A model generated the notes under the pieces. The model searched no databases, was not told where the DNA came from, and saw nothing but the letters and a program-made list of their open reading frames with translations. From Ramlibacter tataouinensis TTB310 (lineage in GTDB: Bacteria; Pseudomonadota; Gammaproteobacteria; Burkholderiales; Burkholderiaceae_C), in the NCBI RefSeq assembly GCF_000215705.1, contig NC_015677.1, positions 2,182,001-2,246,000 of the forward strand: DNA of 64,000 bases, read 5' to 3'. The position numbers and the translations under genes were made by a program. Of this stretch, positions 20,570 through 41,382 are shown piece after piece. Position 1 is the first letter of the stretch, and every line of letters starts with the position of its first letter.

Positions 20570-22000
20570 TCAGGCCCGGCTGCGCTCCCAGAACAGGCGG
20601 GTGGCCTTCAGGCCGGCCGGCGTCCAGTGCTGCACCGGCGACATGGCCTGCACCAGCAGCTGCATCTGGGCATCAGCATCGAGCACGCGCAGCTGGTCCT
20701 CCAGCGCGTCCAGGTCGGGATCGAGCAGCGGCGTCTGAACGTCCGGCGTGGGCAGCGCACGGCCGCGCAGGGTCGCCAGGCGCTGCGCCGCGCGAAAGCT
20801 GGCGCGCTGCGGCACGCCCAGGTCGGCATACGGCTGGCCGTCGGCGCTGGCGGCGCCGCGGATCCAGTCGTGGATCACCTGCAGTTCGTAGCTGCTGAAC
20901 ACGCCGAACATCTCGGCCTTCTCGCCCTGCAGCAGGCCCCAGAAGCGGCTTTCGTCCACCGGCCGGCCCAGGTGGATCCAGCCGGCCTGCTGAAGCGCCT
21001 CCAGGAACCCGGGCACCCGGGACGGTTCGGCCAGCCAGTCGTTCACGCTGCGGCCGGCCACCTTGCAGTAGTCCGAGTGCGCGCCGTGGCCGGCCACGCT
21101 CTTGCGCGACAGGATGCGCACCACCTCGCGGGCGATGTCGAACTCGCGGATCACCTGGGTGGTGCCCAGGCCGGCGTCGGCCAGCTTGCTGCCGTTGCGC
21201 ACGCGCTCCCAGAAGCCGCTGCTGTCGCCCAGCTTGGGCAGGGTGTCCAGCACCGCCTGGCAGGCGCGCTTGGCGTGGCCGGTGTCGGTGTTGTCCACGG
21301 TGACGTGGAGCGTGAAGTAGTAGGGGTCCAGGCCCAGCTCGTTGAGCTCGTAGGCCGTGATCAGCAGGTGCAGCGGCAGCTGCTCGTAGCCCAGGTTGAA
21401 GCCGATCACCTCGGGCAGCAGCGCCTCGCCGTGCCAGCCCAGGGCCAGCTGGATCAGCCCCTGCTCGTAGAAGGCATCGTCCAGGTCGTCCACCGGGTCC
21501 AGCCCGCTGGAGGCCAGCAGCTTGCGATACAGCAGCACGTGGTTCTTGTCGGGGGCGCCCTCCCCCAGTTCCTCCACGTAGGTGCGCACCAGGTCCGAGA
21601 AGCGGCTGTTGCGCCAGTGCGCCACCAGTCCGTAGAGCCAGGAGCCGTCGACCAGCTTGGTGGGCGCGACCACCCGCAGGAAGTACAGCGCGTGGGCCCG
21701 GTTGCCGAAGAAGCGGCGCGGACCGCCCGCCTTGCGCCCTTCCAGGTACTCGGCGTACTGGGCGGCCACGCGCTGGGCGTTGCCGTCCATCCAGGCGCCC
21801 AGCTCCTCCGGGGCGGCGGGGAGATCGGTCGGCGAATCGGCCACCTCGTCCAGCTTGCGCCGCACGAACGCGAGCGCCTCGGCCCGGGCCGCGTCGTCGG
21901 GCTGGTGGCCCGACAGGCGCCAGTACAGGCTTGCCATGGGGCCGGTGGACGCGATCTGGGTGGGGATGGGCCGGGCCCACTCGTGTGCGGCGATGTGCAT
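20570..22000 (-). CDS. Haem-oxygenase-like iron-containing redox enzyme (HDO superfamily)
   Basis: 476 residues. The central part (about 140-310) has the helical haem-oxygenase-like diiron fold: a Glu in YVEELGEG, the HGEALLPEVIGFNLGYEQLP helix, and TLHVTVDNTDTGHAKRACQ, whose His-x4-Asp-x3-His pattern is the family's metal motif. The fold is called iron-containing redox enzyme (Haem_oxygenas_2); characterised members oxidise or cleave small amino-acid or fatty-acid derived molecules. Substrate unknown. GGAG lies nine bases before ATG 22000. The gene is divergent from two ferritin-like genes and convergent with the hybrid kinase. Confidence 0.82.
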   Translation of the reverse strand: MHIAAHEWARPIPTQIASTGPMASLYWRLSGHQPDDAARAEALAFVRRKLDEVADSPTDLPAAPEELGAWMDGNAQRVAAQYAEYLEGRKAGGPRRFFGNRAHALYFLRVVAPTKLVDGSWLYGLVAHWRNSRFSDLVRTYVEELGEGAPDKNHVLLYRKLLASSGLDPVDDLDDAFYEQGLIQLALGWHGEALLPEVIGFNLGYEQLPLHLLITAYELNELGLDPYYFTLHVTVDNTDTGHAKRACQAVLDTLPKLGDSSGFWERVRNGSKLADAGLGTTQVIREFDIAREVVRILSRKSVAGHGAHSDYCKVAGRSVNDWLAEPSRVPGFLEALQQAGWIHLGRPVDESRFWGLLQGEKAEMFGVFSSYELQVIHDWIRGAASADGQPYADLGVPQRASFRAAQRLATLRGRALPTPDVQTPLLDPDLDALEDQLRVLDADAQMQLLVQAMSPVQHWTPAGLKATRLFWERSRA

Positions 22001-22232
22001 GGGAACATGCTCCGCCCGAGCCCTGCGTACAGGTATAGGTTGGGCGCGGCAACGTCCGTGGGAGCGGGCCTACGACTGGGCAGTAGCGACTCAGGCCGGG
22101 TTTCCTGCGCGCCAGTGACTGCGCGGCAACGTGGCTCAGCGCAAGCGCGGACCGCCCGGCATTGATGAATGCGTCCTACAGGCCGGGGCAGGCGCCACTC
22201 GCAAAGATGGCCTGATCGTCCCAAGGAATCCC

Positions 22233-23042
22233 ATGGAAGCCACCCTCCCCGGAAAGAACCGCACCGGCACGGCCACTTCGCCGGTCAACACGCAGGCCAT
22301 GACCGAAGCCGCCGCCGAGTTGTCGCCGGCCGTGCCGGTGGACACGGCGGGCCTGGAGGCCGAGCGCATCCTCTACATCAACGGTTCGGAGTCGGTGGGC
22401 TCGATACCGCCGCCCACCGACCTCAAGGGCGTGTTCAAGAACGGCATCGCCAAGATCAAGGGCGGCCAGCCCAGCATCCTGATGGACAAGGTGGGCGAGC
22501 GCATCGCCTTCGAGCGCGGCAGCGTGCGGCTGTACGAAGCGCTGATCGCCAAGTACGAGGCGACCGCAGGGCCCGCCGGCGGCGTGCTGCCCATGGCGCA
22601 GGATGTGATCGAGAACGAGATGCAGGCGCTGGCCGTGCTGGCGCCGGTGGAAGGCGAGCAGCCGCTGGACACCCTGCGGCGCATCCGCACCGAGGAACTG
22701 GTGCACTTCAAGCTGGTGTGCGACGGCATGGTGCGGCTGGGCGGCGATCCGACGGCGCAGACGCCGTGCGCCGACGTGATCGGCACCGCCTCGCTCGGCC
22801 TGATCCAGGTGGTCACCGACCCGCGCACCACGCTGGCCCAGAGCCTGACCGCCATCCTGACCGCCGAACTCACCGACAACGCCGGCTGGGAGCTGCTGAT
22901 CCAGCTGGCCGAGCAGTCCGGCGAATCGGAGCTGGCCGGCGAATTCCTGGGTGCGCTGGCACAGGAACAGGAACACCTGGCCACCATCAAGGGCTGGGTC
23001 GCCGCGCTGGTGTCGCAGGGCGCCGGCACGAATGCCGTCTGA
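22233..23042 (+). CDS. Ferritin-like diiron protein, 269 aa
   Basis: After a disordered N-terminus of ~75 residues, a four-helix bundle appears: RIAFERGSVRLYEALIAKYE; then VIENEMQAL and TEELVHFKLV (an ExxH); then AILTAELTDNAGWELLIQL; then LAQEQEHLATIKGW (a second ExxH). The Glu...ExxH...Glu...ExxH order is that of diiron ferritin-like proteins. It is not a ferritin or bacterioferritin by length. AAGGA precedes ATG 22233, chosen over an upstream in-frame start. It is 27 bases from the next ferritin-like gene. Function unknown; an oxidase or stress protein is possible. Confidence 0.75.
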   Translation: MEATLPGKNRTGTATSPVNTQAMTEAAAELSPAVPVDTAGLEAERILYINGSESVGSIPPPTDLKGVFKNGIAKIKGGQPSILMDKVGERIAFERGSVRLYEALIAKYEATAGPAGGVLPMAQDVIENEMQALAVLAPVEGEQPLDTLRRIRTEELVHFKLVCDGMVRLGGDPTAQTPCADVIGTASLGLIQVVTDPRTTLAQSLTAILTAELTDNAGWELLIQLAEQSGESELAGEFLGALAQEQEHLATIKGWVAALVSQGAGTNAV

Positions 23043-23069
23043 TTGCGAAGAACAACAAGGAGAACCTCC

Positions 23070-24251
23070 ATGGCCATCCACCTGCTCAAGGACAAGGGCA
23101 TGCCGCTGGAGCGCCAGCGCCTGACCTGGAAAGACATGGTCGACAAGCCGATCAGCAAGCTCGACGACGACGCCTTCACCCGCCTGCGCGTCATCCTCAT
23201 GAACGGGCTGGAGCTCGACTCGCTGCGTACCAAGCAGGTGGCCTTGCGGCAGAACCTCGAAGCGCGGGTGCCGATCGCGCAGCTGATGCGGGTGGAGCAG
23301 CACCAGGCCACCACCATCAACTGGCTGATCGGCCCGGATCATTCGCCGCTGGAGACCACCATCGGCTACGAACAGGCCGCCATCGAGATCACCGCCGCCG
23401 TGGCGCAGCTCGAGCCCGATCCCTACCTGGCCCAGGGCTACCGCTTCGGCCTGCTGGAGGACTTCGACCACCTGTACCGGTATTCGGCCCTGCTGGACCG
23501 GCTGGAGGGCAAGGACGCCAACAACATCACCCAGGGCTACACTGACATCGTGCCCGGCCGCGCCACGCTGTTCCACCACCGCGCGCCGGAGCATGAGCTG
23601 CTGGAGCCCTACGGTCCCAACGCCGCTCTGGCCACCAAGCTGAACGCGCTGACGCTGACCGGCGCCGAGTACCAGACGCACGACTACTACATGAACATCG
23701 GCCCGCTGTTCGCCGATCCGCTGGCGCGCCAGCTGTATGCCGAGATCGCGTCGGTGGAGAGCCAGCACATCACGCACTACGGCTCCATGCTCAATCCGCA
23801 CGAGAGCCTGCTGGAGAAGCTGCTGCTGACCGAGGTATGCGAGGTCTGGAACTACGCCGGCTGCGCCGAGCAGGAGACCAATCCGCGGCTGCGGGCCCTG
23901 TGGGAGCAGTTCCTGGACTACGAGCTGGGCCACCTGCAGGTGGCGATCCGGCTGTTCCAGGACGTGGAGCGGCGCGACGTGGCCGAGGTGCTGGGCGACG
24001 GCCGCCTGCCGCCCTTCATCCCGTTCCGCAGCCAGCGCGAGTTCGTGCGCCAGGTGGTGGAAACCGAGACCCAGCTGCGCAAGCGCGGCACGGAGTTCGT
24101 CGACGAGGCCCAGGAAGGCAAGTCGTCGCTGGAGTACCGCAAGGCGGTCAACGCCGGCGGCTCGCCGTCCGAGACCGTGTCGGCCACCTGGTCCTGGTCG
24201 CCCGGCACCGAGCTGACGCGCGAGGAAGTGCCGCAGCAGCAGTCCGCCTGA
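23070..24251 (+). CDS. Larger ferritin-like protein, 393 aa
   Basis: Four or more helices carry possible metal ligands: RVEQHQATTINWL, TTIGYEQAAIEIT, LLEDFDHLYRY, GAEYQTHDYY, IASVESQHITHYGSM and LDYELGHLQVAIRLF. The last two ExxH sites (ESQH, ELGH) and the repeated Glu/His placement suggest one or two diiron centres in a ferritin-like bundle. The C-terminal ~90 residues are charged and then low complexity. ACAAGGAG precedes ATG 23070 at ideal spacing. It is surely co-transcribed with the 269-aa ferritin-like gene. I do not recognise a characterised homologue. Confidence 0.7.
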   Translation: MAIHLLKDKGMPLERQRLTWKDMVDKPISKLDDDAFTRLRVILMNGLELDSLRTKQVALRQNLEARVPIAQLMRVEQHQATTINWLIGPDHSPLETTIGYEQAAIEITAAVAQLEPDPYLAQGYRFGLLEDFDHLYRYSALLDRLEGKDANNITQGYTDIVPGRATLFHHRAPEHELLEPYGPNAALATKLNALTLTGAEYQTHDYYMNIGPLFADPLARQLYAEIASVESQHITHYGSMLNPHESLLEKLLLTEVCEVWNYAGCAEQETNPRLRALWEQFLDYELGHLQVAIRLFQDVERRDVAEVLGDGRLPPFIPFRSQREFVRQVVETETQLRKRGTEFVDEAQEGKSSLEYRKAVNAGGSPSETVSATWSWSPGTELTREEVPQQQSA

Positions 24252-24287: not shown

Positions 24288-24638
24288 ATGAGCGATAGGG
24301 TGTGGGTTGACCTGGCAGGCGACCTGATCCTGGCCAGGATCAGGGGCGAGCCGGACGCCGAGATGCTTCGCGAGTGCCAGGAGAAGGTGCTGCTATTGGC
24401 CGCTGAGGCAGGCCGGTCCCGCGTCTTGTACGACACCTTGGAGATGACGCCACCTCCGGTGGAGGTGACGTTCGTCCAACGACAGCTTGACGCGCAAGCG
24501 GGAGCCGCCGCCTTGCGTCGTGCGATCGTGGTTCCGAACAGCCGCCTGGCGTACCTGGCGCGATTGGCATTCGGAGAGGGCGACTACCGCGTCTTCTATG
24601 GCGACATGGTTGCAGCCATCAAATGGCTGAGTGAATGA
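24288..24638 (+). CDS. SpoIIAA/STAS-like small protein
   Basis: 116 residues: VWVDLAGDLILARIRGEPDA, ECQEKVLLLAAEAGRSRVLYD and ALRRAIVVPNSRLAYLARLAF, an alternating strand-helix pattern like the SpoIIAA-like (STAS/SEC14) single-domain proteins. It lacks an obvious phosphorylated Ser of the anti-sigma-antagonist type. Its base composition is less GC-biased at third positions than the neighbours, for instance near 24400-24560, hinting at a different origin. It overlaps the end of the convergent PAS kinase by 20 bases. A related protein lies at 26999-27355. Confidence 0.55.
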   Translation: MSDRVWVDLAGDLILARIRGEPDAEMLRECQEKVLLLAAEAGRSRVLYDTLEMTPPPVEVTFVQRQLDAQAGAAALRRAIVVPNSRLAYLARLAFGEGDYRVFYGDMVAAIKWLSE

Positions 24639-26998: not shown

Positions 26999-30523
<3,525 letters not shown>

Positions 30524-35268: not shown

Positions 35269-36036
35269 TCAGTCCATCCGCGGCTGGCCGGAGGCGGCGG
35301 TGACGCCGCCGTCCACCGGCAGCGCGACACCGGTGACCATGGAAGCGTCCGGGCTGGCCAGGAAGGCCACCACGGACGCGACCTCCTCCGGCCGGGCCGG
35401 CCGGCCCAGGGGCATGCGCTTGCGGAACTCGGCCATCAGCTTGCGGTCGCCCTGCATGTCCTCGGTCATGGGCGTGAGGGTGAAGCTGGGGCACACGCAG
35501 TTGACGCGCACCCCCTCGGCGCCGTGGTCCAGCGCCAGGGCCCGGGTGAAGTTGACGATGGCGCCCTTGGAAGCGTTGTAGAAGCTCAGGCCCCAGTCGC
35601 CGCCCAGGCCGGAGACCGAGGCCATGTTGACGATGCAGCCGCGGCTGGCCACGAGGTGCGGCATGGCGGCACGGCAGCCGTGGAACACGCCGCCGGCATT
35701 GATCGCCATCACCTCCTCCCAATCGGCCAGAGAGGCCTCGGTGACCTTGCCTTCGGGCGCCACGCCGGCGTTGTTGACCATGACGTGCAGCCCGCCGAAG
35801 GCCTTGACGGCCGCCTGCACCAGGGCCTCCACCTGCCGGTACCTCGAGACGTCCGTGGGCTTGACCAGGGTGCGCTCGGGCGGGAGGTCGCGCGCCACCC
35901 GCTCCAGCTTGGCGCGGGTGCGGCCGGCCAGCACCACGGCCGCGCCCTCCTGGGAGAACCGCCGGGCGATCGCCTCGCCGATGCCGGAGCCGGCGCCCGT
36001 GACGACCACGACCTGGTTCTCGAACCGCTGCTGCAT
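35269..36036 (-). CDS. SDR family NAD(P)-dependent oxidoreductase
   Basis: 255 residues, classical short-chain dehydrogenase. Nucleotide motif TGAGSGIGEA (near 14), NNAG (near 88), catalytic Ser in NMASVSG and Tyr-x3-Lys in YNASKGA (near 157), and a C-terminal VDGGVTA. The residues after the second strand (AGRTRAKL) include Arg, which favours NADP, as in FabG-like ketoreductases. Substrate unknown. It is alone between the convergent MHYT gene and divergent dapC. Confidence 0.9.
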   Translation of the reverse strand: MQQRFENQVVVVTGAGSGIGEAIARRFSQEGAAVVLAGRTRAKLERVARDLPPERTLVKPTDVSRYRQVEALVQAAVKAFGGLHVMVNNAGVAPEGKVTEASLADWEEVMAINAGGVFHGCRAAMPHLVASRGCIVNMASVSGLGGDWGLSFYNASKGAIVNFTRALALDHGAEGVRVNCVCPSFTLTPMTEDMQGDRKLMAEFRKRMPLGRPARPEEVASVVAFLASPDASMVTGVALPVDGGVTAASGQPRMD

Positions 36037-40518: not shown

Positions 40519-41382
40519 ATGACCGTGCTGGAGCTGATCGAGGCCGGGGCGCGGCGCCTGGCGGATGCGGGCGTCGCCTTCGGCCACGGCACGGCCAATG
40601 CCTTCGACGAGGCCGCCTGGCTGGTGCTGTGGAAGCTCGGCCTGCCCCTCGGCGAGCTGGATGCGGTGGCCCAACGGGCGGTCAACCCGGCCGAGCGGGC
40701 GCAGGTGGCCACGCTGCTGGAGCAGCGCATCGCCAGCCGCAAGCCGGCCGCCTACCTCACCCACGAAGCCTGGCTGCAGGGCGTGCCCTTCTACGTGGAC
40801 GAGCGCGCCATCGTGCCGCGCTCCTTCATCGCCGAGCTGCTGGCCGACGGCACCGTCGATCCCTGGCTGGGCGAGCACACGAGGCAGGTGCTGGACCTGT
40901 GCACCGGCAACGGCAGCCTGGCGGTGCTGGCGGCGATGGCCTGGCCCGACGTGAAGGTGGATGCGGCCGACCTCTTGCCCGAGGCGCTGGAAGTCGCGCG
41001 CATCAACGTCGACCGGCACGGCCTGCAGGGCCGGATCCGCTTGCTGCAGTCCGACGGCCTGGCCGCGGTGCACGGCCCCTACGACCTGGTCCTGTGCAAC
41101 CCGCCCTACGTCAACGCCGCCGGCATGGCGGCGCTGCCCGCCGAGTACCGGGCCGAGCCTGCGCTGGCCCTGGCCGGCGGTCCCGACGGCATGGACTTCA
41201 TCCGCCGCCTGCTGCGCGAGGCGCCCGGGCGCATGGCCGAAGGCGCCGTGCTGGTGCTGGAGATCGGCAACGAGCGCGCGAACTTCGAAGCGGCCTTCCC
41301 GTCCCTGGAAGCGGTCTGGCTGGAGACCAGCGCCGGCGAGGACCAGGTGCTGCTGCTGACGCGGGAGGCGCTGCCCGCATGA
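40519..41382 (+). CDS. prmB: Ribosomal protein L3 glutamine methyltransferase PrmB
   Basis: 287 residues. SAM-dependent N5-glutamine methyltransferase, with the glycine motif VLDLCTGNGSLAVLAA, acidic DAADLLPEALEVA, and the catalytic LCNPPYVNAAGM. PrmB rather than PrmC because of AAYLTHEAWLQGVPFYVDERAIVPRSFI, the PrmB-type substrate region before the fold, although PrmC is close. It methylates L3 during large-subunit assembly. The gene follows dapE by two bases and overlaps the ABC-F gene by ATGA. Confidence 0.9.
   Translation: MTVLELIEAGARRLADAGVAFGHGTANAFDEAAWLVLWKLGLPLGELDAVAQRAVNPAERAQVATLLEQRIASRKPAAYLTHEAWLQGVPFYVDERAIVPRSFIAELLADGTVDPWLGEHTRQVLDLCTGNGSLAVLAAMAWPDVKVDAADLLPEALEVARINVDRHGLQGRIRLLQSDGLAAVHGPYDLVLCNPPYVNAAGMAALPAEYRAEPALALAGGPDGMDFIRRLLREAPGRMAEGAVLVLEIGNERANFEAAFPSLEAVWLETSAGEDQVLLLTREALPA

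What the first reader, a model, noticed from the sequence alone, without database searches (positions are those of the whole stretch)
20570..24251. Three different diiron-type proteins in one divergent cluster
A haem-oxygenase-like diiron enzyme (476 aa) faces two adjacent ferritin-like proteins (269 and 393 aa), the latter with four to six candidate Glu/His helices. None is ferritin, bacterioferritin, Dps or a known hydroxylase. Their shared intergenic region (22001-22232) has REP-like words. Such clusters often build or break a small molecule, or protect against peroxide. I cannot match it to any described pathway, and regard it as the best candidate for an undescribed system here.
Basis: partly seen in the sequence, partly recalled or inferred. 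Interest (0 to 1): 0.7.

Follow-up and report, generated by a model that had tools for sequence, protein, structure and literature searches.

The report
Desiccation-type diiron proteins beside double ferritin
Three iron-type proteins sit back to back in a soil bacterium: one is a relative of a protein recently shown to keep a hospital bacterium alive when dried, and the other two form a widespread, little-described pair, one of which looks like two ferritin-type bundles in a single chain, so together they are a good candidate for protection against iron and peroxide damage in dry cells.

Summary
The three proteins are real and the diiron reading holds. HDO (20570-22000, -) is a full-length homologue of DtpC, the haem-oxygenase-like protein that protects Acinetobacter baumannii from drying (PMC13232832, 2026); the three residues whose mutation abolishes DtpC's protection are conserved. 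f1 (22233-23042) is a ferritin-like protein with an invariant E...ExxH...E...ExxH motif, nearest in sequence to symerythrin. f2 (23070-24251) belongs to a large family without a Pfam or NCBIfam match. Its predicted fold has eight helices that match ferritin folds in two ranges, apparently nested; candidate ligands are conserved to Actinomycetota. f1 and f2 are adjacent in 80 of 80 fetched loci, despite one gene-order inversion; in more distant genomes f2 stands beside DUF4142, hemerythrin or DUF892 proteins in 8 of 9 loci. HDO is usually not linked to the pair, but one other genome (G754) has the same divergent arrangement in a Ku/LigD/trehalose stress island. HDO and pair loci are both enriched for such markers, the pair only moderately. 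In 19 of 20 fetched Pseudomonadaceae loci HDO is followed by a methyltransferase that this genome seems to lack. Most likely function: protection from iron and peroxide damage during drying. The REP claim fails. No activity is shown for f1 or f2.

The parts
20570..22000 (-). HDO: 476-aa haem-oxygenase-like diiron protein (PF14518 at residues 106-257), homologue of A. baumannii DtpC; conserved E143/E144, H154, E206, H232, D236, H242, and a conserved C-terminal part without a Pfam match
22001..22232 (.). 232-bp divergent intergenic region between HDO and f1; no REP family, no sigma-70 or terminator consensus match found
22233..23042 (+). f1: 269-aa symerythrin-like ferritin-fold protein; E94, E155xxH158, E212 (with D215), E245xxH248 invariant in 39 rows; conserved N-terminal N9-T11 peptide of low model confidence
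23070..24251 (+). f2: 393-aa protein of a family without a Pfam or NCBIfam match; eight-helix model that matches ferritin folds in two ranges (about 30-302 and 88-244), read as two nested bundles; candidate ligands E48, E76/Q79, E101, E130/D131/H134, E200, E230/H233, E255/E258, E285/H288
   Evidence: ligand numbers count Met as 1, model ranges do not

Best explanation
The cluster is a desiccation and oxidative-stress protection locus. HDO is a DtpC-type haem-oxygenase-like dimetal protein that keeps hydrogen peroxide low in dry or resting cells (shown only for the A. baumannii homologue). The pair f1-f2 is a conserved two-protein ferritin-like module. f1 is a single bundle of the rubrerythrin/symerythrin type. 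f2 carries two nested bundles with two candidate dimetal sites. The pair most likely oxidises loose Fe(II) with H2O2 or O2, so that Fenton chemistry is quenched when metabolism stops. Steps shown here: homology, ligand conservation, pairing, stress-island context in part of the loci, and a second genome with the same divergent layout. Steps inferred: metal binding, peroxide or iron chemistry, f1-f2 contact, the nesting, shared regulation with HDO.
For: HDO aligns with the A. baumannii ORF that directly precedes a katE-type catalase over 434 residues at 35% identity. DtpC E143, H153 and H232, whose alanine mutants fail to protect (PMC13232832), correspond to window E144, H154 and H232. The fetched stretch of the other PF14518 protein of this genome gives no tblastn match to that ORF. 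f1 ligands are invariant in 39 rows. f2 ligands are invariant or nearly so in 12 rows down to 37-40% identity, in three phyla. f1 lies beside f2 on the same strand in 80 of 80 loci, at most 127 bp apart between tblastn matches in 79 and 527 in one. The order f1-f2 needs one change on the tree (98/92) and the partner was kept. Outside beta/gamma-proteobacteria, f2 stands beside DUF4142, hemerythrin or DUF892 genes in 8 of 9 distinct intact loci. G754 has HDO(-) beside f2-f1(+), between Ku-LigD and SDR-GlgE-TreS genes. Stress markers occur in 14 of 80 pair loci and 13 of 33 HDO loci against 1 of 40 control loci.
Against: No activity of f1 or f2 is known. HDO and the pair are unlinked in nearly all genomes. 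The window holds none of katE, Ku, LigD, GlgE, TreS, DUF892, DUF4142 or hemerythrin; only a 34% SDR match far off at 35302-36027. 66 of 80 pair loci show no marker of the set within about 6 kb. The marker set was taken partly from these loci; without the three query-source loci the pair enrichment is 11 of 77 against 1 of 40, p 0.04, not corrected for relatedness. The 33 HDO loci were picked by me, not at random, and averaged 16 kb against 13 kb for controls. DtpC did not protect against acute peroxide (PMC13232832).
Confidence: 0.6

Rival explanations
1. HDO is a biosynthetic oxygenase: with a dedicated methyltransferase it makes or modifies a protective small molecule, and peroxide control is indirect. 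Its nearness to f1-f2 is only co-residence in stress loci.
For: A PrmC/HemK-like methyltransferase lies on the same strand in 21 of 33 HDO loci: directly downstream in 19 (20-101 bp between alignment edges) and upstream in 2 (275 and 1535 bp); 0 of 40 control loci have it. In Ramlibacter, 9 of the 20 best methyltransferase loci have HDO within 1.5 kb. A zinc alcohol dehydrogenase is near HDO in 7 of 33 loci, directly after the methyltransferase in L212, and in 0 of 40 controls. Characterised HDOs make small molecules, and the DtpC authors list this option (PMC13232832).
Against: No orthologue of the methyltransferase was found in this genome: its best hit, 2.3e-14 at window 40828-41274, looks by its sequence like the housekeeping PrmB type (my reading). 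12 of 33 HDO loci show no methyltransferase, among them the three plasmid-collection loci, two of these Acinetobacter, where DtpC works. The dehydrogenase varies in place and strand.
Confidence: 0.35
2. f1-f2 is an enzyme complex (oxygenase, or manganese-catalase-like), not an iron-handling system: f1 or f2 supplies an O2- or peroxide-activating dimetal site for a defined substrate.
For: Ferritin-like bundles include monooxygenases. The f1 homologue of G754 scores above the Pfam cut-off for COQ7 (34.3 against 23.5 bits). The f2 structure lists include manganese catalase KatB and aldehyde-deformylating oxygenase. A luciferase-like monooxygenase gene recurs near the pair in 22 of 95 loci against 1 of 40 controls.
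Against: Structure matches are tied across ferritin, Dps, bacterioferritin and YciE types. f2's partner changes between ferritin-like and hemerythrin families, which suits a shared iron or peroxide role better than one substrate. The luciferase-like gene was seen only in Pseudomonadaceae loci, nearly all Stutzerimonas by title, and L022, so descent explains it; a zinc dehydrogenase is near the pair in only 8 of 95 loci.
Confidence: 0.25
3. The adjacency of HDO and f1-f2 in this genome is accidental: two unrelated stress genes that came to lie together.
For: 0 of 80 pair loci and 1 of 33 HDO loci show the linkage. By genus, 4 of the 7 f2-bearing genera in Pseudomonadaceae also carry HDO, 8 of 19 genera having a match to it (about 3 expected; read).
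Against: G754, with an f2 from another clade, has the same divergent layout within a stress island. Genome co-occurrence in Pseudomonadaceae is 29 against 15.2 expected (not corrected for phylogeny).
Confidence: 0.35

Closest known systems
DtpC (desiccation tolerance protein C, ABUW_2437, A. baumannii)
   Same: Full-length homology (35% over 434 aa to the ORF before katE, taken as DtpC from its place and residue numbers), PF14518 domain, conserved E143/H153/H232 equivalents
   Different: No katE in this window; divergent ferritin-like pair instead; host is a soil bacterium (recalled)
Symerythrin and rubredoxin-less rubrerythrins
   Same: f1 profile matches symerythrin (1.6e-6); E...ExxH...E...ExxH motif
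   Different: f1 has an extra N-terminal region of about 60 residues with a conserved peptide, and a constant f2 neighbour
YciE/YciF (DUF892) stress ferritin-like proteins
   Different: G754 f1 scores below the DUF892 cut-off (22.7 against 23.7)
Ferritin-like fold as in Dps, bacterioferritin and rubrerythrin, for f2
SznF, UndA, CADD and other HDOs
   Same: HDO domain and ligand pattern, by the DtpC comparison in PMC13232832
   Different: No significant sequence match to any solved HDO (best E 1.7)

Membership tests
DtpC-type HDO | PF14518 domain | tested here: met
   5.5e-32, 111.4 against 28.9 bits
DtpC-type HDO | residues E143, H153, H232 needed for DtpC function | tested here: met
   align to window E144, H154, H232
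DtpC-type HDO | full-length similarity, better than the other PF14518 protein of this genome | tested here: met
   35% over 434 aa; the fetched stretch of the other PF14518 locus gives no match
DtpC-type HDO | protects drying cells and limits peroxide | not testable with these tools
   known only for A. baumannii (PMC13232832)
Rubrerythrin/symerythrin-like (f1) | ferritin-like four-helix bundle | tested here: met
Rubrerythrin/symerythrin-like (f1) | E, ExxH, E, ExxH on the four helices | tested here: met
   E94, E155xxH158, E212, E245xxH248 invariant in 39 rows
Classical rubrerythrin (f1) | rubredoxin domain | tested here: not met
   no such Pfam match, so f1 is not filed as classical rubrerythrin
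Pfam Ferritin PF00210 (f1) | curated cut-off | tested here: not met
   19.2 against 24.5 for window f1; its G754 homologue reaches 28.9
Ferritin/Bfr/Dps cages | 12- or 24-mer iron-storage shell | not testable with these tools
   no oligomer modelling available
Any named family (f2) | Pfam-A or NCBIfam model over cut-off | tested here: not met
   best 13.9 against 24.7 in Pfam, 16.8 against 183.75 in NCBIfam; three distant homologues no Pfam match to E 0.01
Ferritin-like superfamily (f2) | ferritin fold with conserved carboxylate/His ligands | tested here: inconclusive

The most novel reading that the evidence does not exclude
f2 founds a new protein family: one ferritin-like bundle inserted into the crossover of another, giving two dimetal sites in one chain. 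It works with a small diiron partner (f1, DUF4142, hemerythrin or DUF892) as a peroxide-consuming iron oxidase for dry or dormant cells, and has been joined at least twice, independently, to a DtpC-type HDO in one divergent stress locus.
Probability: 0.35. Interest if true: 0.75.

Novelty: new variant of a known kind. Interest (0 to 1): 0.6.

Why it matters
DtpC was reported in 2026 as the only HDO linked to drying, with its chemistry unknown. Finding relatives in soil bacteria, in an operon-like arrangement with a methyltransferase in Pseudomonadaceae and beside ferritin-like pairs in two genomes, gives other organisms in which to find that chemistry. f2 is widespread (7971 of 7998 scored candidates significant) and none of the 120 rows listed carries a Pfam domain; most of the named rows there read hypothetical protein, a few rubrerythrin or ferritin-like. 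If it is a double ferritin, that would give meaning to many such genes and predicts what to assay.

Tried and rejected
REP-like words in the intergenic region: rejected. A fixed three-gene operon: rejected. Sequence search of solved structures: no significant hit for HDO, f1 or f2 alone, none for the HDO or f2 profile; the f1 profile found symerythrin. Profile comparison of f2 pieces with f1 gave no confident match (probability under 2%), and f2 outer against inner pieces only 7.9%, so an internal repeat is only suggested. Ergothioneine genes egtB/egtD beside the pair: seen in 3 of 95 pair loci and 1 of 40 controls, so not claimed. Paper searches: no paper describing f2 was seen in the listings (library limited to open-licence papers). 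Papers: PMC13232832 abstract, sections 3, 6, 10 and passages; PMC3164672 and PMC5114695 passages; others search listing only. The organism name Ramlibacter tataouinensis TTB310 is recalled from the genome size (4,070,193 bp); no call names it, but named Ramlibacter proteins are close. 'YhdF', used for the SDR in scripts, and the comparison of D215 with rubrerythrin's extra carboxylate are recalled.

Duplicate genomes exist among the 95 loci (L026 and L048). Tistrella L187 and G680 L220 appear to be the same locus (100% over both neighbours) and are counted once; L222 and L223 are two loci of one genome; L225 was cut by its contig and not counted. The 33 HDO loci were chosen by me from the hits (L202 because of its adjacency). 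In one search I dropped G277 (weak hit only) from the HDO set and kept G839, whose f2 is a fragment. f2 was run as 23073-24251, without its initiator Met, in every call.
Full report
Observation. Three ORFs lie as described: HDO 20570-22000 (-, 476 aa), f1 22233-23042 (+, 269 aa) and f2 23070-24251 (+, 393 aa), with 232 bp between HDO and f1. HDO matches PF14518 (5.5e-32); f1 and f2 reach no Pfam cut-off, and none of the three has a meaningful NCBIfam match. Relatives are many: 1993 for f1, 7971 for f2 and 2822 for HDO at E 1e-3 or better, among about 8000 candidates scored in each case. The REP-like words are not a repeat family: two exact copies in the genome, and 6 matches against 18 for the reversed control with up to 2 mismatches.

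HDO. A profile of 16 rows shows invariant E143, E144, H154, E206, H232, D236 and H242. A paper of June 2026 (PMC13232832; abstract, sections 3, 6 and 10 read) describes DtpC of A. baumannii: an HDO co-transcribed with katE. A dtpC katE double mutant survives drying poorly and accumulates H2O2, and either gene rescues it. The E143A, H153A and H232A forms fail. In a fetched A. baumannii locus an ORF of 478 aa (PF14518, 3.3e-24) directly precedes a catalase ORF (PF00199, 7.8e-180). It aligns to HDO at 35% over 434 residues, and counted from its Met10 the three DtpC residues fall on window E144, H154 and H232. The fetched stretch of the second PF14518 protein of this genome gave no match to it. 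I therefore file HDO as a DtpC-type HDO by sequence; its activity is untested.

Pairing of f1 and f2. In a sample of 150 genomes of the family, f2 occurs in 5 and f1 in the same 5, plus two weak hits. In 299 genomes of the phylum f2 occurs in 7 and f1 in 6 of these, plus one weak hit elsewhere; the seventh f2 genome is G278. In the 80 fetched named loci f1 is beside f2 on the same strand in 80, at most 127 bp apart between matches in 79 and 527 bp in L098; in L096 the contig end cuts f1. This genome has a second pair at 1,227,783-1,229,698. A tree of 40 f2 sequences needs a single change for the order f1-f2 (98/92), so the pair stayed together through an inversion. Outside the f1 range, f2 stands next to other small diiron-type proteins in 8 of 9 distinct intact loci: DUF4142 plus hemerythrin (L136, L223), DUF4142 plus a hemerythrin-DUF892 fusion (Tistrella L187, L221), hemerythrin (L188, L189, L222), DUF4142 (L224); L190 has none.

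Link of HDO and pair. HDO is in 9 of 150 family genomes and shares only G000 with the pair. It is in 15 of 299 phylum genomes, 5 of them among the 7 with f2. In 148 Pseudomonadaceae, f2 is in 34, HDO in 66 (G277, weak, dropped) and both in 29 (15.2 expected, Fisher 4e-8, not corrected for phylogeny). By genus the association is weak: 4 of 7 f2 genera carry HDO, about 3 expected (read). Of the 29, 13 have both on one contig by the listed places and 1 has them adjacent. No pair locus among the 80 has HDO within about 6 kb. The adjacent case, G754, has HDO(-) and f2-f1(+) back to back, within a locus holding Ku, LigD, an SDR, GlgE and TreS. Its f2 belongs to a different clade from the window's, so the layout probably arose twice.

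Context. Markers (Ku, LigD, DUF892, SDR, GlgE, TreS, DUF4142, hemerythrin and others) occur in 14 of 80 pair loci against 1 of 40 control loci spread over five pair-bearing genomes (p 0.014; 11 of 77 without query-source loci, p 0.04). A similar set with katE occurs in 13 of 33 HDO loci (p 6e-5; 11 of 31 without L201 and L202, p 3e-4). The HDO loci were picked by me and were somewhat longer than controls; neither test corrects for relatedness. The window itself shows none of katE, Ku, LigD, GlgE, TreS or DUF892. Two other genes recur: a luciferase-like monooxygenase near the pair in 22 of 95 loci (L022 and Pseudomonadaceae loci, nearly all Stutzerimonas by title; 1 of 40 controls), and zinc alcohol dehydrogenases near the pair in 8 of 95 and near HDO in 7 of 33 loci (0 of 40 controls), at varying places and strands.

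A second partner of HDO. In 21 of 33 HDO loci, and 0 of 40 controls, a methyltransferase (PrmC/HemK-like by score, below every NCBIfam cut-off shown) lies on the same strand, directly downstream in 19; these 19 are among the 20 Pseudomonadaceae loci fetched. In Ramlibacter, 9 of the 20 best methyltransferase loci have HDO within 1.5 kb. The window's genome has only a weak hit, 2.3e-14 at window 40828-41274, in an ORF that looks like PrmB (the name is my reading). This favours an enzymatic role for HDO and keeps the small-molecule rival alive.

Verdict. HDO: new member of a known kind (DtpC). f1: new member of the ferritin-like superfamily. f2: a family without a model and a new arrangement of a known fold, if the nesting is right. 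The cluster most likely protects dry or dormant cells from iron and peroxide damage. The host, if it is R. tataouinensis TTB310 (recalled), is a bacterium from a semi-arid region whose cysts resist desiccation (abstract start of PMC6848086 in the listing); its genome paper has no occurrence of 'ferritin' or 'heme oxygenase' in its main text.

Noticed in passing
window 24288-24638 (+) and 26999-27355 (+): Two SpoIIAA-like (PF11964) small proteins; the first, below the Pfam cut-off, starts 36 bp after f2 on the same strand, the second is clear (43 bits).
   Followed up: no
L022:8781-10702 (G000:C1:1227783-1229698): Second f2-f1 pair in the same genome, in the other gene order, next to egtB and egtD ergothioneine genes; the same neighbours occur in Ramlibacter rhizophilus (L058) and Tistrella (L187), 3 of 95 pair loci against 1 of 40 controls.
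   Followed up: partly
L202:5278-6276 and 18 other Pseudomonadaceae HDO loci: Methyltransferase directly downstream of HDO on the same strand.
   Followed up: partly
window 20570-22000, C-terminal half of HDO: About 180 residues after the HDO domain are well conserved (K300, H308, C312, N320, W322, H458 among invariant columns) but have no Pfam match.
   Followed up: no
window 22233-22300 (f1 N-terminus): Conserved peptide around N9-T11 of f1 in a region of low model confidence; might dock f1 to f2.
   Followed up: no
G000:C1:416909-417280 (L002): A second PF14518 protein in this genome; the fetched stretch gave no tblastn match to the A. baumannii DtpC-type ORF.
   Followed up: partly
L104, L048 (same genome as L026), L067: DUF1264 proteins near the pair in three genomes, one of them the query; none in 40 control loci.
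   Followed up: partly
L022:7607-8632 and Stutzerimonas loci such as L064:2574-3620: Luciferase-like monooxygenase (PF00296) near the pair in 22 of 95 loci, 1 of 40 controls.
   Followed up: partly
L070:2350-4792 and L224:7774-10258: ORFs that look by eye like cytochrome bd oxidase subunits close to f2 (not scanned).
   Followed up: no
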